From NCBI GenBank assembly GCA_947561715.1, contig OX387197.1, positions 3,787,001 to 3,851,000 on the forward strand: a stretch of 64,000 nucleotides of DNA. The letters run 5' to 3'. Under the pieces are notes generated by a model, which worked only from the letters and a program-made list of their open reading frames with translations, searched no databases and was not told the DNA's origin. Below are positions 8,203 to 52,378 of the stretch, piece by piece. Each line of letters starts with the position of its first letter. Positions within the stretch are counted from its first letter, which is position 1. Source of the stretch: Ascidia mentula. Its lineage: Eukaryota; Chordata; Ascidiacea; Phlebobranchia; Ascidiidae. Both the position numbers and the translations under genes were made by a program.

Positions 8203-9794
8203 CATTTTGGAACATTCTTGAAACCAAACACTTCTTGCGTTAACATCTGCTGTACAAATGAAATCATGTTTACTCTCCTCAAAAGACTACAACGTAATTG
8301 TACTACTGGACATCGATAAAACCCCAAACGATACCAAGACATTTTTTTTTCGTGACCTGGGGGCTCCCTTCTCTCAGAATGAAGCGAAATGCGAAACATC
8401 GTTGGTTGTAGGACTACAGGGAAGTGGTGTTGTTTACTGCGAGATATGCGTAGCAGTTGTAGCGGAACGCAAATGGTTTTCTTTGGAACAGCACAAAATT
8501 TTAATTTAAATATCTTTCGAAGTTTTTATGAATAATTTAGATACCAGAAACGATAGTGTGAAATGGTAAAGCGTGTCGAAAATTCATTGTAATTTAGCTG
8601 ATAAAAAACGCCTAACACTTCCTTGCACTACAGTTGAGCACAGCGCACACAGAACTCACCAAAAAAAGAACCTTCGCTGTAAATTATTTCCACTCGAGAA
8701 ACGTTATATGTGTGTGTCGAGTGGGAATACGTTCCTGTGGCACTTACGTTTCTATATTTGAAACGCTTTAGCTTGGAATCAGCGTTTGGTTTCGTGTTAA
8801 GGTGACTATAAGATCCAGGCCATTCTATTGAATATACTGAACTTTGTAAAGGGAGTCTCCATGCATAAGGTTTGCGCCGGCCACTGTTACATCTGCCTAA
8901 AATTTGTTTGCCTTCTTTCAACTTTTTTAAACACAAGTTCAGTATATTCAATGAGATTTTTTACCAGACAATAACTTTGTCCTGAGGCTATGACTTTACT
9001 ACTTTTCCAGGTTTTTGGAACAAGGATTGCAACGTTACGGAAGTAAATCTTCTGGTGGGTAGCCACAATTAAAACGCTCGACACGTTGGTTATACTTTCC
9101 TTCAGAACCACCAAATTTTATTAAAATTAATTTAAAAAGAATAATGTCGTAATGAACCTGGTAATTTTGAGAATAAAAATTCCGCAGGTTCCAAACATAG
9201 TAAGCAGTATTCCGCAGGTTTTCTAGCAATACAAAAGCAAAATGCTTGGTTAGCCAAACTATTCTGACACCTCGAGTTTGAAACGCTTTTGCGGTCTGTT
9301 TTCATACTGGAAATGAAATTTAAGTGAGCTTCTGCCCTTTTACTCTACGCGAGGTTTCCGTCCTCGCTGAGCTCACCTTACAACATATGCGCTACTCTTC
9401 GGAAAATGTTTCGCCCAAGTCAAACTCTGCGCCTGATAAGGTCTTCAGAGCGAAACACCGAGAGCGCTGCACTTTAAGCTAAAACCGTGACCCAAAGGTC
9501 GCTTTCCACGTTAATGAGTAATGACGCAACAAGCAAAAGGATATGTTATTAAAGTTCCATGTATTTTTTTTATATGTGATTGTTGATAAAGCAAAGTGTT
9601 TACAAAATACACAAAATACTCAAATACACTCGAAAATTCCTTGCAATCATGGTAAAGTGTTTGTGGTTATTATAATTTTGGCCACTTCTAAAAATAACAA
9701 AAGAAAAAAAATTTCGATGCATTTTCCCTTATTTGTGTTTAATCACGCAACTAATTAAATTTATATGTTTTGTCAGTTGTTCTGTGCTCGTGTT
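8203..9794. other. Region between gene A and the ficolin-like gene
   Basis: The stop codon of gene A and the last exon of the ficolin-like gene converge here. No convincing exon was seen. A small inverted repeat lies at 8828-8951. The segment 9428-9460 holds a weak hammerhead-like string that did not fold properly and is listed among rejected items. Confidence 0.4.
8828..8951. repeat. Short inverted repeat, foldback-like
   Basis: TTGAATATACTGAACTT at about 8828 recurs as its reverse complement AAGTTCAGTATATTCAA at about 8935, with about 90 bases between the arms. This may be a small foldback or MITE remnant. Confidence 0.5.
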
Positions 9795-13057
<3,263 letters not shown>

Positions 13058-26900: not shown

Positions 26901-28285
26901 CAAAGAACAAATTTAAACATATTTTACAACGCAGTGATGTTTCATGCACGCTGCACAAATCCCTACTTCACAGCGATCGTTTCGAGATCATTGGGTTTAC
27001 AGGCTTCGCAGCCCAGGCATTGCAGTCTAGCTGAATTAGCCACTTTTTTCGATGTCTGATTGTAGATAGAGATTCGTACATGTGAACGTTGCCTGGCAAG
27101 TTGTGTGCTTGCGTAATAGTGTACCCCAGTCACAATATACCCCGTAAAACAGCTAAGCTCCTGTAGCTCAGTTGGTAGAGCATTGTATCTATTTAGCCCA
27201 GGGTCGTGAGTTCAAAACTCACCTGGAGGTTAATTTTCCAAATCTCGTTCCGACTTCTCAAGAAAAAGTGGCTGATCCAGCTAGCCTGCGAAGCCTGTAA
27301 GCCTAATGTTTTTGTAATAGCTATGACCTTTTACAGAACCATGCAAAACAAATTACTGCTTTACATAACAGAGCTGTTGCGCTATTATTTTGTTGCAAAC
27401 TGAAAACGATAAGAATATCTGTACCTTGAAACATGGCTGGAAACTAACTAATGCGTCCCCTGTTTGTTTGATAAATTTGACCTTGGCTACACCCTCGAGT
27501 TTTTTTGTGAATTCGTCAAACCCATTTTCCGTTTCCAGAGCGAATTTCCACATGCATTCATTAACATTTGGGGAAAATGTGAACTCCTTTACGGTATTTA
27601 CTGCAATACAGATCCAGGGTGAGAATGTTGCTTTAAAAGTCAATCGAGTTTGGGGACTATCAGTTGTAAGAGGTTATGTAGTAAAACAAACATTTTCCAT
27701 TCCTGATTGAAAATCAATAAATAATGATACTCACTTGTCTGCACATGTTTCATCAAAATCTCGCTAATATGTAGATCGTGAGTTGAACCACCATAGTTGA
27801 TTTTCAAACCATAGGCTTTTATTGCTTGAAGACCTAATTCATACGTGGTGTGAGTGCGGTAACAAGTACAAGTTTTGGCAGGAATATACTTTTTGATCAT
27901 CACTGTCCGATATGCTTGAAATATAATTACTATAGCCTGCAAGTCTATAAACAAATTTTCACAAAAGTTGCGCTTTTAAAATTATAATTATGAAACTAAT
28001 ACACCTGGCCACCATGTATGATACGTAAAGGATGTTCCACATATATAGCATACAGGGTAAATTTCAATGATCTTACTTGTGATACAAATACCTACTTGCC
28101 AAGTCGTGTAGTGTAACTTCCGCACCACTTTTATCCTTGGTACCATCTTCCCGTTCAATAAATTGCACCTTGTGGGGCTCTTTCTTGTTTCTAAGTGAGT
28201 CTCTGATTGCGAGTCTCAGCAAAAAAAGTTTGTATCCATCTGGTATCCCCTTGACGTGAATGCGGAAATGTTTTTCAGATGACAT
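23982..28285 (-). CDS. Gene E: RRM-like, WWE and PARP mono-ADP-ribosyltransferase without macrodomain
   Basis: Exons from the minus strand: 28285-28096, 27929-27735, 27600-27425, 26811-26600, about 26464-26375, 26173-26112, 25958-25819, 25697-25508, 25371-25239, 24686-24556, 24499-24325, 24265-23982. The start MSSEKHFRIHVKGIPDGYK resembles an RRM first strand, and the 190-nt first exon matches genes D, G and J. The next two exons correspond to 56160-56351 and 57570-57736 of gene J. A WWE-like region (YVSWKFCDPNTN, VVVDFSTMTATSG) precedes the catalytic domain with LFHGTDA, GVYFS and YIFAVFRD, an H-Y-I triad. No macrodomain exon lies between the N-terminal modules and WWE, so this member would write but not read ADP-ribose. 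One phase mismatch near 26375 is unresolved. Introns carry a MITE and a tRNA-bearing foldback. Confidence 0.83.
24741..24875. mobile_element. Harbinger-like MITE, 135 bp
   Basis: Perfect 50-bp terminal inverted repeats (24741-24790 and 24826-24875), beginning GGCCGGGTCCACACTCACGC, enclose a 35-base loop. TAA flanks both ends, fitting the three-base TWA target duplication of PIF/Harbinger elements. It lies in an intron of gene E. It has no coding capacity and looks young because the arms are identical. Confidence 0.88.
26998..27300. repeat. Foldback element with tRNA-like core
   Basis: TTACAGGCTTCGCAG at 26998 and a following TAGCTGAATTAGCCACTTTTT recur as a reverse complement at 27262-27300. 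Between the arms lies a tRNA-like sequence at 27157-27229. The left arm has about 14 extra bases. The unit sits in an intron of gene E. It may be a tRNA-derived SINE captured in a foldback, or a composite of two insertions. Confidence 0.6.
27157..27229 (+). tRNA. tRNA-like sequence, probably a pseudogene or SINE head
   Basis: A clear A box (TAGCTCAGTTGGTAGAGC) with a good D arm and a T arm (GTGAG-TTCAAAA-CTCAC) are present at normal spacing. The acceptor strands pair at about five of seven positions. The anticodon stem does not pair, so no isotype can be given. This is likely a tRNA-derived pol III promoter, not a working tRNA. Confidence 0.55.
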
Positions 28286-44415: not shown

Positions 44416-44790
44416 ATCTGATATTTATGCCGGAGTGATAGCAGGTCACATCGTTTCATGTAAATGTCGAATTCATGTACCGCAAAGAAGTTATATAAGT
44501 GATTTCACTCCAAAGGCAGTATTTTATTTCTCACATACCATTTCCACAAAGTATTCTAGGAAGTTGATGGTGAAAGCAGTACAGCATTAAGTCCAAAATA
44601 GATATCGATTTTTTTGGGAAAAAACTACCATGGCCAACTACTGGGCAACAACGCACAAACCAAATGGAGCGCTTCCATCCCCATATAAAGAGTGTTTTGC
44701 CTAATTGATTCCAGTATGTTGGACGAAATATGCCTTGTTGCTTAGTGTTCATACCGATGACCTATCTTTTTCCGAGATGTCGCTATCAAA

Positions 44791-45640
44791 CGGTATGCAC
44801 CATTTTTTCCTGCATGACTTCGATCAAAAGTATCTTTCGAAATTTGTTCACTGGTAGCAGTGTAGGTTTTATGTTATGTTTACTCAGTGATAACACAAAA
44901 CCTAACTATAACTCCAAAAAGACTCCAACACTGTGCAATTAGTAATTACTGGGATGTATTAAAATTAGTAAGACATTCGAATACTCACAATAAAAGATGC
45001 AATTTCAATGACGAAGATCGAGTAAATCCAATTGGCGTTGAGACAGTACAAATGTTCAATGTTACGTTTTTGGAAATTGTCTGGCTTTACAGCCCAAGCG
45101 GTCAATTATAACGACTAACTTTCAGGCGTGTTGACCGGGTAAAAATGTCATAAACAAACGTAGATTATATAAAAATCATAAGGCTTTGGTCAGCGGAAAA
45201 GTCCGTTGTTAACCAAGATGAATTTCTCTCACGTGCTAGAGCGGGTTTATCAGATTTATAACGCTCGAGTATCATGACTTGGCGAATTAAAGAGTGACGT
45301 GCGTTAATGAACGAATGTTGGTTAAACAAACAAAAGCGATAACATACAATTTTCATTATCTTCTACAGCAGCATCAGTTCCATGGAAAAGCTCACGGGTT
45401 ACAAGTTGGTTTGGAATTTTCTTCTCAATCTTCCTTTTCTGTTCTTGAAACTGATTCCACTGAGTAACGTTTTGAGTCCTATGCAGCTAAAATTCATCCA
45501 ATGTGCTAATACTATGAAGAACTATCTCATATTCGCTCGAATTCGGTGAAACGAGAAACTTTTTGGTAACTTCGCCTTCCATGTCTTCCCACTGCAGCCA
45601 AGGTGGCATCGTTACTAGAAGTGTCGTGTCTTATTTTTTT
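44791..45640 (-). pseudogene. Fragmented PARP catalytic region
   Basis: Minus-strand pieces match the three exons before the last catalytic exon: WLQWEDMEGEVTKKFLVSPN near 45605-45500, HRTQNVTQWNQFQEQKRKI to ELFHGTDAA near 45487-45363, and SKDTFDRSHAGKN near 44860-44791. The catalytic exon is split, with about 500 bases of unrelated sequence between HGTDAA and its continuation. No GVYF exon follows. This is a broken copy most like genes A, E and H. Confidence 0.75.
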
Positions 45641-46457
45641 TTCTATGTGTGTGTTGTGCAATGCATTGTGCCGCGTGAAGAACTGTTTGAAGTGACATAT
45701 ATAACGTGACATATTTTTTTAGTTGATTTGCTTTACAGTAAGTAGGTATATTCAATGTGGACTTTCAAAAGTTCAAATAGGTTGGGCTATCTGTTACGAT
45801 AGCGGACAAACAAAACACTATACGTTCATTGATCAAGTTGGTTTAAAAATATTTTCATATTGGAGGCGCGGAGAAAAATTGTAATTGGAAACCCGTAATA
45901 TTGGCCACACTTTTAACATGTATGTAGTAATTTTGAAGTTTTGAAACATCTGTTATTCCGTAACGAACACCATGTGTGGTTTAATGCGACGACAGGTGCG
46001 TTTGTTTTTACAGTTTTCTATTTAGTTATAATGGTTGACCTATAACCGTGCGATTTCATTTGGGCAGTCGTTGGTTAATAATATTTCTTTTCTGCAAGTT
46101 TGTGGAAGAATATCCGTCGTTAGTATTATGCCATTACTACTTAAGCTAGTGCACTTTTTCTTGCGGTAAATAAATTGCCTTTGAAAGGTTCCAACAACAT
46201 CAAATAACAATATTTTCAGTTGTATGTAACTAGTTTACATGTAAAGTATACTTTCACAGCAGACTTAACACAGGGCCGATTCATGGTTCGTTTGTGGAAC
46301 CACATTGAAAACATGAAACGCAGAAAACAAAAAGACAACGAAAGAAATCACTGAACTCGAAAAAAGTTCGTGCAAGAAGAAAGTGAATTCTAAAATTATA
46401 ACATATTGTCCATTACATAATCTCATAATGGTTGAAAGTAAATTTAGCAGAATTGCA
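45641..46457. other. 3' flank of gene I
   Basis: No exon seen. The part at about 46260-46430 is the reverse complement of 31080-31290 next to the gene I relic, so it marks the extent of a past duplication. Confidence 0.5.
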
Positions 46458-49400
46458 TCAATCTTTGTAGGTTAACAAGTAAGCAGGATAGACACTCGCA
46501 TCGCGAAAAACCACAAATATGGTCGGATTGCTGGGATTGTCTACCACACAATCGTATGGCGTCCCATCCATCTGTAGTGGAGCCATGTAGGTTTCGCGAG
46601 TTCCCTGGCAGAAAACTCCAGTTATAACCTCTGCCAAAAACATCCACTTATTTCCTTCGGCGTCCGACCGTGCATAACATTCGGAAAAGTCTGCATTTTG
46701 AGCAAAATAAACTCCGTGGTGACCGTACACAGCGCCTAAAAAAAATATATATATATATATACATGAATGTGAGTGGAACGTTTAATTGATTATTGCGTTA
46801 CCGTTTTTCCCAGCGCGATGCCGATCAAATCCATGTTTCAAGATTGCTTCGCAGGTGGCTGCATCAGTCCCGTGAAAAAGTTGACGAGTAACGTCTTTAC
46901 TTTTGAGTCTCTTCTCTACCATTTGTTTTTGGGATATAAACTGATTCCACAATGTTGGATTTTGTATTCTCATCAACTGTAGTTTGTTATAAACGTAAGG
47001 TTTTTTCAGAGACACCTTTTTTTGGTAGTTTATCATTGCGATTTTAAGATTAAAATAACTGACAAACTTGCAATGCTTTCTTCGCCGGAAATTCGTTAGC
47101 AAAAATGAATTGCTTTGAACGTCATTGCATATAAAGTGTAAACAGAAGTTGTTTTGAACCTTACCTTAACTGGTGTGATGTCCAAAGTTTTTTTGTATTT
47201 TTGGAGCACCTGTCGATATTCGGCGCTAAATGGAAGTACTCTAACCTTTTTGTACATTTCACCTTTCATGTGTTCCCATGTTTCGGGAAAACCTGCACAT
47301 GATCATAAACATGTGGTCATTGACAACAAATTAAGTACAAAATTTTTTTCCTTAACGCTTATATTTGGCGTGATAAAATAAAACAAAAATTCTTAAAAAC
47401 GTAAAACTTTGTTTCAGACTTATTGTCAGTGATTTTCTATCATCTACGTAATTAGTGGAATAGACAAATGTAATTACTTTCCGTCATTGAAAACAAAAGA
47501 ATTCTTTTGATTTTGTAAGTTGTGCAGAATACCCTTGACTCCATGTCTGCAAAACCAACGCTATGAATAAAGCCTAGGAATCCTGCTTGGACGGAGGTTC
47601 GACCTTTTTTGTTTTTCTGAAAAACACAATCCCACATTGCCTTTCATAAAACTAATTAAGTTGAAACTATTTAGCTTGCTGTAGATAAAAAACATAACAT
47701 TATTTTGGTTTCTATATAAGAGTGCAAGTCAAAACGGCGAAAAAGGGCATTACCGTAAATAAAATTTATCAAGGCCAATTGCTGTGTAATTCTGTCTAGG
47801 TTTGTCAAACAGTAAACGCAAGAAAGGGGCTTTTTATGTTCGCAGTGCATTTAACGTATCTTGCAATATGGCTTGCGCCAGCGGAATTATTGTGCACCTC
47901 AGTATGTTTTATTTGCGCCCCAGGTATATATTTGCATGTTTGCGTTTGGATGTAAAATCTGCGTACCGTTTGCAATAATACGCTTCAACTGTTTTTCTCC
48001 AATAAATTGTTGCTGATGCGGCATATTTAATTGCCTAATACTGCTCTTCTGGCAAATTTTATTTTATTTACGTTTCTCAATTTTGATCAAGCATCACCGA
48101 GCCACGGAACTTGGTATTATGTTAGGTTATTCCTCACCCTACGCGTTAATTCCATACCTTGTATGCAGTTTCAAGTTCATAGTTTGCCTGAACTGAGAAC
48201 TTGACCTCCGGTCCACTTTCACCCAGATAGGTCCAAGATACATATTCAGAACATAGTCGGATTTTTTGTAACTTTAAAATGATTTCAATTACTTTGTGAG
48301 ACGCTTCTAACACATCGGTTTGCAACCTGCGAATTATCAGTTTTCTAAAATAAAATCATATATAAGTAGTCCTACTGACTGTTCGTAAGATAGAAGTAAA
48401 GAAATATAAAAACCTTCACCTTTAAAACGTATTTATTTCGCAATTTAAAAAGCAATATAAAACAACATGCCGAAGTTGGGCAATCTTACCTGACATATTT
48501 TATAACAACTACAACGTTGTAATCTTTCCTGGTTTTATGAAGTTCTTCATGTTCATATAGGGTCAGGTACTCAATAACGTCGTCTTCAAAGACTTTTTCA
48601 GTGGTTATCTCTTCTAAAATATGTTGCACCGCCACGAACGCCTATATTTTGATTAAACGTCTTTAGAAACGACAGTAATAATGTAAAGTAACCATTTCTT
48701 TTAAACAAAACCTTATCGATGTTTGCGTTCGATGCTGAACAAAACAAAATCCGAACTGGATCGAGACCTGAAAAAAGCACAAAAAAGGTTAATTGTAGTT
48801 GTTGAAATCATAATTTGTTTTGCTGATTTAATATCACATCAACCTGTTGAAAGTAGCGATTTTCCAATGCTATCACCAACAATTTTTTGGTCCACTGATA
48901 TCATCCCAGTCTGCACACGTGTGCAGTCGAATGAAAATGTTTTCCACAGAAATATGTAAAATATATGCAATGATATTTTTTAAACCGATATTGATAAGCA
49001 CTTATCTTTACCGTGATGTCATTATTCTGGTTAAATAGGACCAGAAAGACGTTGCAAAGGTTAATGCCATGGTTACGATTCACTTCCTTTTGTAGAGTAG
49101 ATAAAACTACATCTATTGGGAATCCAAAACCACCAGCACCCAGAGTGGGAAATGCGATGGACGAATAGCTCGAACTTTCAGCCATATTTAAGCATGTGCG
49201 AATGGCCGTTCTCAAAGTTCTCGTGTCGTTTTCTGAGCAATAAAATGGAAGCAAAACATGATAGACTTCATTGCAAGGAAGTTTAAAGCCTGGGGTGGCC
49301 ACCACGTTTCCGTCACTGAGCTGATCATTGCACTTTGCTTCGCAGGCCCTCTGCAAAATACACTACAGTGATTTACTTGCGTCGTACAAGAAATAATTCC

Positions 49401-52378
49401 ATTTATAAAGCTTTTACCTACCTGTAGTCCCACACCGGCTTGTTTGAGAAGAGCTTTAGATATTGCAGATCCTTGGCAACTTGAAAAGCTGTAGGTTGTT
49501 GTAGAAGTGACCATAACGTCGACCTTAAGTTTGTTACTTTTAATGAAAAAATTACACTTGTACAAATATAAAAACTTACAATCATTGTGGTAATGTCACC
49601 ATTTACCACATGGAGTTTTTTTTTGATTTTGCGTCTCGAGAATGGAGGTTCTTTCTGTGAGAATACAAAAAGCAGTTTGAGAAAAATATATCAGCTGAGC
49701 TTTCTACAAATGTGAAAATGTATTTAGAAGCAGTTAATTTTACATATTTTACCTGGAATTTTGTCTCTTTGAATGGCGTATTCACATTTTGGGGGTCAAC
49801 CACCCCAATGCTTCGGTTATTCTCCCCGATTGTTGTTATCCGAATACGACCTCTATCACTTCTGAAGTATTCCGCCCAGTAGTCAGATTGACTACATGTC
49901 ATTTCCTTTAGGATCAGTTTCTTGACCACCTTCCTCAGTATAGTACCAGCTGCAATCAAACGCAACAAAATGCAATAGGTCACAATTATTACAATTGTTT
50001 TGTAGCAATCAGACAAAACAAAGTTAGGGATATTATAAAAAATTACACAAACTCGGTATTTTGTAAATGTTTTGCCAAAATGTATAAAAAAGTATTTTCG
50101 TCACCTGGAGCTGTTGATGCTTTGGGGTGCATAAAACTATGAAATTCTATATTTCATATGATAAGGAAAGTGGAGCCAATAATACGAATTGTGTAAGCTG
50201 CAGACAGATGGCCACTGTTTCGACCTAAAAGGTCTCATCAGTGCAGCTGGTGTGACTTTCAGAAGACTTTGCTGACCAAATTGCCAAGCAAAGACTACCA
50301 CTTTGTGGTGACTATACAATCACCGTTATCCGTTGGGCACCAAACTAGGTGCAACCTTACGGAGAAAACAAGGTGGAAACATGGCCAAGCAATGCTCAAC
50401 CAATAGTGCTGTCAGGCCGTTTGATAATCACACCAGCTGCACTGATGAGACCTTTTAGGTCGAAAGAGTTGGCCATCTTTCTGCAGCTTACACAATTTTA
50501 TATTTCAAGTTAAAACTTGCATAACATTCGTTGCTAATACAACTGGAAATTTAACAATGCCTTCACTGTGTTCATCTTATAAGACTGGATTCCATTAAAA
50601 AACAATCGTCTACACTTACCAGCGTTAACTTGTTTGTTTTTTCCAGTGATCTGAATGCGAGGTGGGTTCCGTTTGAATACAAACTCAGACTTGTTGAAAG
50701 TGTTGTATTTTTCCAAATGTTTGATGACCACCTCACGTTCTGCAAACCATCGCGTTACATAGGTTTCGTCTAATATGTATTCACTGATATCTTGATGCGC
50801 TTTGTCCAAACTTCCTTGCAAGCCCACTATGTCAATGGTCGAAGAATCCGCCTAAAACATCTTTTGCTTCACGTAAATGATATTTGGTTGCATTTGTCAC
50901 AACTTGGACTTACGTTTTCATACACTGCGATAGAAGAAAAAGCGCATGTACGTCGTTTCAACAGATCCCATTCTAAAGATTTAACGATCTCCGGAAATCC
51001 TTCTTCTACTTCAACAGTTTTTTGTTCCACAATTTGCATCAAAGCGTTCTTTATTTTGTCCTTTTCGCTTGGCTCAAGAAACACTAGAACTGCCTTGTTG
51101 TCCTCTATTTGCAGAGACACTGCGCCAGACAAACAAAACTGATTAGACAACATCGACGAGCCTTTAATTCAATTGTTACACAGAGCACTGGCTGTACAGA
51201 AACTTACAATGATTTAAAACATTATAGTGAGGAGCAATTCTTAAAAAACTTTTTTCGAGAGTAAAGCATTTTTTCCTAAACTTTGGTCATTGTAAACTTA
51301 CCATAAACTTTTTTTTCTGACAAGGACGACTGAATGTTTTTTAATACACCGGATCCGTCATCATAGGCTGCCTTTAAGTGTGATAATATAAAGTCTGAAC
51401 GTTTTCCTATATCCGGAAGATCTTCTGATTTTAAATTCTGTGAATGTAAAATTACACACTTACAAAATAATATACACGGTTTGATGTACATTTTTTACCT
51501 TGATAGTGTCGTTTATTTTTGATCTGGCCTCTTCAACATTTGCTCGAATTCCAGTGAGTGAAATATTTCCACCAACTCCACTAATATCTTTGGCCAATTT
51601 CAAATCAAGCGTTTCTTGAAATTCTTCTTTGATTTGAGAAAATATGTTGCAGTATAGTAGGGCTCTGAAGTAAGCAAAATAAATACTTCGAATAATTTTT
51701 CATTGTTTGGCTACTTTTTTCCTTTTTGGCCAAATCTGACGGTAAATTCATGAGGGCCCCCTATTTGACAATATTTTTCATCTCAAGATGGGGCTTCATT
51801 GGCAAGGACTTCTTAATTTTTTGTCTTTTATGCAAGATTTTGAAACGTTTCCATTTGACACAACACGTATAAGCGAATAAAGATCACTTCAAACCTGTAA
51901 TCCCGCTGTGATAAAACGATTGTTTCATCCAACTTGTCGTCACGACTCTACCAAAAAATAATTTACTAACATAACTAACATACAGTGACTATAGATCATG
52001 AGTTTCACTGGCATTACAGTGATAGTGTTGCACCCAAGCTGGTGCAAAGGGCCTAAGTATTGGACAATCAGGTCTTGTTATGTGATAGTACGAAACACTT
52101 TCGCGTTGTAATTCGTAATGAAAGTTATAAAGTTTTAAGATAAACAAACAAATGAACTGATTTTAACTTATATTAGTTTTGCATTTTGCTTAGTTGTTTC
52201 CCAACTGTCTATTTTAGTTTTGTCAAAAACGCAAATTTATTACGAACGAAATGGTAATGCCATCGCTCGCATGTTTAAAGTTTACGTTTTAGAAAAACAT
52301 TGATACCCTTTACCATTCTTGGTGCTGGAACTGGTGGGCAATTGACTTCGTCATCTCTCTCCGATGCCGAATTTCTCC
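46458..52378 (-). CDS. Gene I: KH-like, one macrodomain, WWE and PARP mono-ADP-ribosyltransferase
   Basis: Exons from the minus strand: 52378-52314, 51947-51895, 51664-51499, 51437-51302, 51119-50914, 50851-50620, 49949-49753, 49654-49580, 49523-49422, 49350-49012, 48910-48844, 48767-48712, 48641-48490, 48344-48158, 47616-47478, 47292-47165, 46976-46802, 46735-46458. All phases agree. The first listed exon has a proline motif (CPPVPAPR). Exons 51664-50620 are KH-like (LAKDISGVGGNISLTGIRA), as in the N-terminal half of PARP14. One macrodomain follows with LGAGGFGFP, then a WWE-like region (YVSWTYLGESG) and the catalytic domain: LFHGTDA, GVYFA and TIFVVFRD, an H-Y-I triad. Closest relative is gene J. 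The exon with the start codon was not found and should lie upstream of 52378. The intron 49950-50619 carries a hammerhead palindrome. Confidence 0.85.
50196..50248 (-). ncRNA. Hammerhead ribozyme, type I, sense to gene I
   Basis: Read on the minus strand: AGCTGCA (stem I), CTGATGA, GACC-TTTTA-GGTC (stem II), GAAA, CAG-TGGCCAT-CTG (stem III), TC (with the preceding G a GTC cleavage site), then TGCAGCT pairing seven for seven with AGCTGCA. Every core nucleotide of the hammerhead consensus is present. It lies on the coding strand of gene I, so the intron RNA would contain it. The fold is seen in sequence; cleavage is not tested. Confidence 0.87.
50435..50488 (+). ncRNA. Hammerhead ribozyme, type I, antisense copy
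   Basis: AGCTGCA (50435-50441), CTGATGA (50442-50448), GACC-TTTTA-GGTC (50449-50461), GAAA (50462-50465), GAG-TTGGCCAT-CTT (50466-50479, one G-U pair), TC (50480-50481), and TGCAGCT (50482-50488). Core and stems I and II are identical to the minus-strand copy. The compensating G-U in stem III means the fold is kept despite drift. Confidence 0.87.

What the first reader, a model, noticed from the sequence alone, without database searches (positions are those of the whole stretch)
50187..50497. Two complete hammerhead ribozymes facing opposite ways in one intron of a PARP14-like gene
Both copies have the full consensus core (CTGATGA, GAAA, a GTC or TTC cleavage site) and three paired stems, with stem I seven of seven and stem II four of four. 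The second copy keeps stem III with a G-U pair. One is sense to the host pre-mRNA, so the intron RNA could cut itself. The opposed layout in a 311-base unit with no coding part is unlike a simple solo copy. The motif is seen directly; self-cleavage and any effect on splicing are inference.
Basis: partly seen in the sequence, partly recalled or inferred. Interest (0 to 1): 0.87.

Follow-up and report, generated by a model that had tools for sequence, protein, structure and literature searches.

The report
Ribozyme retroelement with Penelope-type double ends
The two facing-away hammerhead ribozymes are the two halves of one small mobile element, and its ends suggest that it was copied into both strands of a DNA break by the machinery of Penelope-type jumping genes.

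Summary
The two hammerhead ribozymes are real and correctly placed, but they are not a unique intron device. They are the two arms of one insertion (about 50157-50497; 14-bp target-site duplication, one mismatch) of a family with 2484 near-exact cores in this 195.8-Mb genome. The unit is 284 bp, non-coding, often head-to-tail: a metazoan-type retrozyme. All 44 distinct two-arm copies parsed are divergent. Outer ends lie about 16 or about 46 nt after the cleavage site; of 40 with both ends called, 39 have one of each (19 of 20 among contig-C1 loci chosen by core alone, window excluded). A GIY-YIG Penelope-like element (PLE) of the same genome shows the same rule in 15 of 15 inverted copies examined, one of them in this window. 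A PLE protein in vitro cuts and extends both strands and starts at two adjacent RNA sites (published). Most likely, PLE machinery inserts these retrozymes by priming on both strands, one copy per start, from circular or multimeric RNA. PLE mobilisation of retrozymes was proposed in print but open. No cis sequence shared with a PLE was found. Self-cleavage of this intron is doubtful: its RNA folds into a masking hairpin.

The parts
50143..50156 (.). left copy of the target-site duplication, AATTCTATATTTCA
   Evidence: one mismatch to the right copy
50157..50418 (-). left arm: one cDNA copy of the 284-bp retrozyme unit in minus orientation, outer end of the LONG type
   Evidence: L001: unit 67 round to 52, the last bases overlapping the TSD
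50196..50248 (-). hammerhead ribozyme, type I, GUC; cleavage expected between 50203 and 50202
   Evidence: its lone-RNA MFE is another fold
50419..50421 (.). junction between the two arms (3 bp belonging to neither alignment)
   Evidence: L001
50422..50497 (+). right arm: shorter cDNA in plus orientation, outer end of the SHORT type
   Evidence: L001: unit 226 to about 17; the scripts print 25 because the TSD extends the alignment
50435..50488 (+). hammerhead ribozyme, type I, UUC, one G-U in stem III; cleavage expected between 50481 and 50482
   Evidence: lone-RNA MFE fold is the hammerhead fold, z -2.7
50494..50507 (.). right copy of the target-site duplication, AATTTTATATTTCA (overlaps the SHORT end by up to 4 bp)
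49950..50619 (-). host intron (predicted) of a macro/PARP gene
   Evidence: donor GCTG|GTAAGT, acceptor TTGCAG|CTGG, frame continues; for neighbouring domains
10048..10061 (.). left TSD of the PLE copy, ACACTTCAGTTGGT
   Evidence: read
10062..11231 (.). truncated inverted copy of an autonomous GIY-YIG PLE (LONG end left, SHORT end right), under the same end rule
11232..11245 (.). right TSD of the PLE copy, ACACTTCAGTTGGT
   Evidence: read

Best explanation
A non-autonomous metazoan-type retrozyme inserted by PLE machinery. Proposed course: tandem genomic units are transcribed; hammerheads cut the RNA to 284-nt monomers, some of which close into circles (inferred; reported for other metazoan retrozymes). 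A PLE protein cuts AT-rich DNA on both strands about 12-14 bp apart. Each free 3' end primes reverse transcription on retrozyme RNA, one at the SHORT site (about unit 16) and one at the LONG site (about unit 46), both just 3' of the hammerhead cleavage site. The two cDNAs run past the ribozyme junction, sometimes several times, stop at unrelated places and are joined; gap filling makes the TSD. Result: divergent arms, 3' ends outward, one end of each type. Shown: anatomy, TSDs, end rule, the same rule in PLEs, intact PLE ORFs. Inferred: circular template, the PLE as agent, a paired enzyme.
For: Family: 2484 cores with at most 2 mismatches, 0 for the reversed pattern. Tandem 284-bp units. TSD score of 8 or more in 44 of 69 elements against 1 of 205 mismatched flank pairs; of 40 oriented TSDs scoring 9 or more (L044/L045 both counted), 34 are 12-14 bp and A+T is 78%. 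End rule: 35 of 36 inverted copies with both ends called are SHORT+LONG (34 of 35 with the duplicated L044/L045 counted once); unchanged rule on 20 further loci 5 of 5; together 39 of 40. The best-match loci were found with a query that itself has both ends, which could favour the rule; the C1 loci were chosen by the 24-nt core alone and give 14 of 15 plus 5 of 5, that is 19 of 20 (window copy left out). At 50% per element the chance is about 2e-5 (my arithmetic). Orientation: 44 of 44 distinct two-arm copies divergent (21 of 21 in the C1 sets). PLE-A: 953-aa ORF, RVT_1 E 1.8e-6 and GIY-YIG E 0.0013, both just under Pfam's cut-offs, 3493-bp tandem unit; 15 of 15 inverted copies examined are SHORT+LONG; a PLE-C pair likewise. 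Published: the PAc PLE protein cuts and extends both strands and has two start sites that bound the 'tail' (PMC11167929, main text read); PLEs suggested for retrozymes, unproven (PMC7229834, sections 13 and 17 read). Template: 71 of 78 arms exceed 60 nt and 23 exceed 300 nt, though the starts lie only about 16 or 46 nt from the 5' end of a cleaved monomer.
Against: No sequence similarity between the retrozyme and PLE-A pieces (no hit in L031-L040 at E 1e-3) nor PLE-A, B and C pieces (E 0.05, same strand), so the mobilising PLE is not identified. The distance between the two ends differs (about 30 nt against about 80). No RNA or protein data. Exceptions: L066 is LONG/LONG (no TSD); 4 inverted elements have an uncalled end (L022, L025, L029, one in L053); L028 and L054 are three-part; L041's ends sit at the edges of the class limits without a TSD. 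Most single-arm copies show no trace of a second priming (13 of 17). Hammerhead stems show no convincing covariation among 49 distinct copies (one two-sided change, the window's own plus copy), stem I pairs are broken in 3 to 10 of 49, and the lone-RNA minimum-energy fold of the minus copy and of the L018 unit is not the hammerhead. The class limits were set after seeing the first set; the 18 of 40 junctions with 1-4 shared bp were not tested against chance.
Confidence: 0.8

Rival explanations
1. Terminal-inverted-repeat DNA transposon (MITE or foldback) whose inverted ends happen to contain the ribozyme.
For: Long inverted arms and TSDs.
Against: In 39 of 40 copies the two ends are different points of the unit; arms run from 30 to 1680 nt and internal junctions are scattered; TSDs vary from 11 to 17 bp with one of 21; single-arm copies exist.
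Confidence: 0.03
2. Inversion by LINE-type twin priming, or self-priming (snap-back), the reading favoured for PLE palindromes in 2013 (PMC3846280, passages).
For: Head-to-head arrangement; self-priming was proposed for PLEs.
Against: Twin priming (recalled) leaves the inverted segment's outer end at a variable place; here both outer ends are fixed. Snap-back makes the arms meet at the same coordinate; only 3 of 39 pairs of inner ends lie within 10 nt, about what chance gives (2.9, my arithmetic).
Confidence: 0.05
3. The same two-strand priming, but by another retroelement's protein (a LINE or an unseen PLE lineage), the end rule arising independently.
For: No shared cis sequence between retrozyme and the PLE pieces tested; LINEs were not surveyed.
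Against: PMC11167929 calls internal start sites unique to PLEs and two-strand extension unlike R2 and LINE-1; PLE-A and PLE-C here show the rule. A different PLE lineage would still be PLE machinery.
Confidence: 0.12
4. The pair is a host regulatory device: an intronic self-cleaving switch in the PARP14-like gene.
For: One complete hammerhead is sense to the predicted pre-mRNA.
Against: One of thousands of copies; RNA folds to a masking hairpin. Conservation of the site in relatives was not tested.
Confidence: 0.03

Closest known systems
Metazoan non-LTR retrozymes (Cervera and de la Pena 2020, PMC7229834; outline, passages, sections 13 and 17 seen)
   Same: Type I hammerhead, 150-450-bp tandem units, thousands of copies, non-coding, GC under 50%, TSD over 4 bp, coexisting PLEs
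   Different: Described there as tandem repeats; here two divergent arms with a fixed short/long end pair are common. A word search of its main text for 'invert', 'opposite' and 'palindrom' showed only 'invertebrate' and a palindromic tetraloop; its supplement was not seen.
Penelope-like elements with pLTRs, inverted pLTR and 'tail' (PMC3846280 passages; PMC11167929 main text)
   Same: Head-to-head inversion, TSD, a tail at one of the inverted ends, two reverse-transcription starts, hammerhead in the repeat
   Different: The retrozyme has no ORF, has a stem III, a 284-bp unit and a tail of about 30 nt; PLE-A's is about 80 nt
LINE twin-priming inversions (recalled)
   Same: Two primed strands and an inverted segment
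   Different: Outer ends are not both fixed in twin priming
Intronic hammerheads of vertebrates (recalled)
   Same: Hammerhead inside an intron
   Different: Those are single conserved motifs; this is a repeat whose opposed arm masks it

Membership tests
Hammerhead ribozyme, type I | CUGANGA...GAAA core, three stems, NUH site, stem I open | tested here: met
   136 of 143 instances collected by core have GUC
Hammerhead ribozyme, type I | Rfam gathering score | tested here: not met
   also not met by other family copies
Hammerhead ribozyme, type I | minimum-energy fold of the lone RNA | tested here: inconclusive
   met by the plus copy, not by the minus copy
Hammerhead ribozyme, type I | compensatory base changes | tested here: inconclusive
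   one two-sided change over 14 pairs in 49 distinct copies
Hammerhead ribozyme, type I | self-cleavage in vitro; loop I-loop II contact | not testable with these tools
   no bench; no closed loop I is evident beyond the 7-bp stem
Metazoan retrozyme | 150-450-bp tandem unit with type I hammerhead, non-coding, GC under 50% | tested here: met
   284 bp, GC 47.5%, longest stop-free stretch 81 aa in the tripled unit
Metazoan retrozyme | many copies, TSD longer than 4 bp | tested here: met
Metazoan retrozyme | abundant circular RNA | not testable with these tools
   no RNA data; arms longer than a unit fit it
PLE-mediated insertion | two end positions ('tail'), one at each inverted end | tested here: met
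   39 of 40, compared with PLE-A 15 of 15
PLE-mediated insertion | cis sequence shared with a PLE of the genome | tested here: not met
   no blastn hit in the PLE pieces tested; other PLE lineages not tested
Penelope-like element (as a member) | RT and GIY-YIG ORF | tested here: not met
   the retrozyme unit has no frame over 81 aa; L081 has one
TIR DNA transposon | identical inverted termini and fixed TSD length | tested here: not met

The most novel reading that the evidence does not exclude
Every PLE-type integration, of PLEs and of retrozymes alike, is made by a paired enzyme that starts once at each of two sites on one hairpin of the same small circular RNA, one start per target strand. 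The 'tail' is then the mark of an obligate two-start device, and the hammerhead's job is to make the circle on which both copies can run past the starting point.
Probability: 0.35. Interest if true: 0.85.

Novelty: new variant of a known kind. Interest (0 to 1): 0.62.

Why it matters
Which enzyme moves animal retrozymes is left open in the paper read (PLEs 'a strong candidate', PMC7229834), and PLE integration is said to include steps 'yet to be validated experimentally' (PMC11167929). Many insertions with exact ends in one genome turn both into testable questions: the unit 16 and 46 starts, the one-of-each rule, and the need for a circular or uncut template are sharp predictions.

Tried and rejected
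An RF00008 search over the genome found nothing, and its controls did not ring either, so it says nothing. A title search for a 195.8-megabase genome found no paper. The organism was not established: a nine-chromosome sea squirt, Clavelina lepadiformis, was looked up (PMC10884593, listing and passages) but its span is 210.1 Mb against 195.8 here, so it is not claimed. A cis sequence shared between retrozyme and PLE was sought and not found; a resemblance by eye (CACATTG near both LONG ends) is too weak to use. Covariation of hammerhead stems was uninformative. Papers not held: PMC8557442, PMC4209133, PMC522041, PMC19282. Searches were unanswered (not completed); the same request was answered. 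One search was rejected for a character and repeated without it.

Full report
Observation. A descriptor search found only these two places in 64 kb and none in 60 shuffles. Rfam scores are below its curated threshold, but so are those of other family copies. Folded alone, the plus copy takes the hammerhead fold; the minus copy's minimum-energy fold is another. It lies in a predicted intron, 50619-49950 on the minus strand, whose flanking exons join in frame; neighbouring frames match Macro and PARP, the flanking exon piece itself matched nothing.

Family. The 24-nt core occurs 2484 times with at most two mismatches in the 195.8-Mb genome and never when read backwards. A DNA search with the element returned 191 matches from the 40 candidates scored of 2070. 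In tandem copies the unit is 284 bp, GC 47.5%, with no frame over 81 aa. This fits a metazoan non-LTR retrozyme (PMC7229834; outline, passages and sections 13 and 17 seen).

Sample. I parsed 69 elements: those in the 30 best-match loci and in 40 regions around the first exact cores on contig C1, after dropping five loci that repeat a place (L010, L015, L017, L030, L057). A later set of 20 C1 regions was parsed with the unchanged rule (20 elements). The best-match loci were found with a query that holds both end types, so they may favour the rule. The C1 regions were chosen by the core alone, in the order of the listing, except that three places between the sets and the last eleven of the listing were not fetched, and places already held were not fetched again.

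End rule. Outer 3' ends fall at two places: about unit 16 (SHORT...TTATACACAA) and about unit 46 (LONG...TTGCTTATC), counted from the ribozyme cleavage point. Of 40 two-arm elements, 35 are SHORT+LONG, one (L066) is LONG/LONG without a TSD, and 4 have an end that could not be called (L022, L025, L029, one in L053). L044 and L045 carry the same TSD and are taken as one duplicated insertion, so 34 of 35 distinct. The later set gave 5 of 5. Together 39 of 40. In the C1 sets alone, window copy left out, 14 of 15 and 5 of 5, that is 19 of 20. All 44 distinct two-arm elements are divergent (21 in the C1 sets); none is convergent. Two three-part elements (L028, L054) were left out of these counts. 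TSDs score 8 or more in 44 of 69 elements against 1 of 205 mismatched flank pairs; of 40 that score 9 or more and could be oriented, 34 are 12-14 bp and the bases are 78% A+T.

Single-arm copies. Four of the 17 single-arm copies printed (L068, L069, L070, L077), all with a SHORT 3' end, show by eye a few bases of an inverted LONG end at the other side, as if the second copy had been very short. The other 13 show no clear remnant.

Junctions and template. The inner ends of the two arms are spread over the unit, and the distance between them is no smaller than chance (3 of 39 within 10 nt, 2.9 expected by my arithmetic). This argues against snap-back copying. In one search (40 elements, L044 and L045 both counted) 18 joints share 1-4 bp, 15 have a gap, 3 are flush and 4 overlap by 8-21; this was not tested against chance. 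Of 78 arms 71 are longer than 60 nt and 23 longer than 300 nt, up to 1680. Since the starts lie about 16 and 46 nt from the 5' end of a cleaved linear monomer, such a monomer could give only very short copies. The template is therefore inferred to be circular or uncut multimeric; 5 of 78 inner ends lie at the cleavage point (about 2 expected, my arithmetic), so occasional run-off is possible.

Penelope-like elements in the same genome. The second palindrome of this window (10062-11231, TSD ACACTTCAGTTGGT on both sides) is a truncated inverted copy of a PLE. A full unit was fetched (L081): 953 codons with reverse transcriptase and GIY-YIG matches just under the Pfam cut-offs, 3493 bp in tandem; the genome holds 7 full-length stop-free copies at 99-100% identity, L081's own included. 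Its ends are at about unit 60 and unit 138. Fifteen inverted copies were examined, a part of the 44 matches: L031 (the window copy), L032, L037, L038, L039 and the array L036+L034; C2:17443 (L033 with L120) and eight more. All fifteen have one end of each type. In two of them the script printed a wrong coordinate (309) for the LONG end, and the printed letters show the end; in one (C70:1755) the TSD is only 6 bp. A second family (PLE-C, about 43% identical protein) gave one pair, again SHORT+LONG, TSD 13 bp with one mismatch.

Interpretation. In vitro, an Anolis PLE protein cuts and extends both strands of a target, starts inside the RNA at two adjacent sites, and the stretch between them is the genomic 'tail' (PMC11167929, main text read). 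That paper saw no difference in start site between the strands, so a strict one-of-each rule is not shown there. In Adineta, a PLE insertion ends in an inverted repeat with a tail at one of the inverted ends and a TSD (PMC3846280, passages), explained there by self-priming. The retrozyme copies here have the same fingerprint. The simplest reading is that PLE machinery inserts the retrozyme by priming on both target strands, one start each. The retrozyme authors named PLEs as candidates (PMC7229834; PMC7761336, passages). A search for retrozyme with Penelope and target-primed reverse transcription found no paper; one for hammerhead ribozyme, tunicate and retrotransposon listed one paper on another subject; the listings showed no title on this point, but most of their papers were not opened, and the library lacks most subscription papers.

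What stays open. No cis sequence shared by retrozyme and the PLE pieces was found, so the particular PLE is unknown. No RNA was seen. Hammerhead activity is inferred from consensus; stems show no convincing covariation. For the host gene, the opposed arms make one long hairpin in the intron RNA (-180.9 against -112.5 kcal/mol with the ribozyme enforced), so I expect little self-cleavage in place.

Verdict. An ordinary member of a large family, but a family whose ends give unusually direct evidence on how animal retrozymes and Penelope-like elements integrate.

Noticed in passing
window 10062-11231: Truncated, inverted copy of an autonomous GIY-YIG Penelope-like element with 14-bp TSDs; its minimal hammerhead-like cores also face opposite ways.
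   Followed up: yes
window 9260-9543, minus: Diverged fragment of eukaryotic large-subunit rRNA (119 bits) about 0.5 kb from the PLE copy; not known whether it is a pseudogene or a separate insertion.
   Followed up: no
window 27157-27230, plus: tRNA-like sequence, 36.5 bits.
   Followed up: no
window 44742-47165, minus: PARP-catalytic-like frames more than once (RELFHGTDAA at 45322-45486, RQLFHGTDAA at 46782-47165), suggesting duplicated exons or tandem PARP genes (only the second was tested).
   Followed up: partly
L025, left end: Exceptional end at unit 273, where the last 7 bases of a 16-bp TSD match the ribozyme strand: looks like priming by base pairing at a third place.
   Followed up: no
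L061 (C1:5360100-5363100): Two single-arm LONG-end insertions about 420 bp apart with different TSDs.
   Followed up: no
C52:9243209-9260423: Three PLE-A matches in one orientation followed by three in the other, with SHORT and LONG outer ends.
   Followed up: partly
L049, L050, L051; L097, L098, L099; L100, L101: Similar retrozyme copies with the same or nearly the same borders at different places on C1: segmental duplications or copies within a larger repeat.
   Followed up: no
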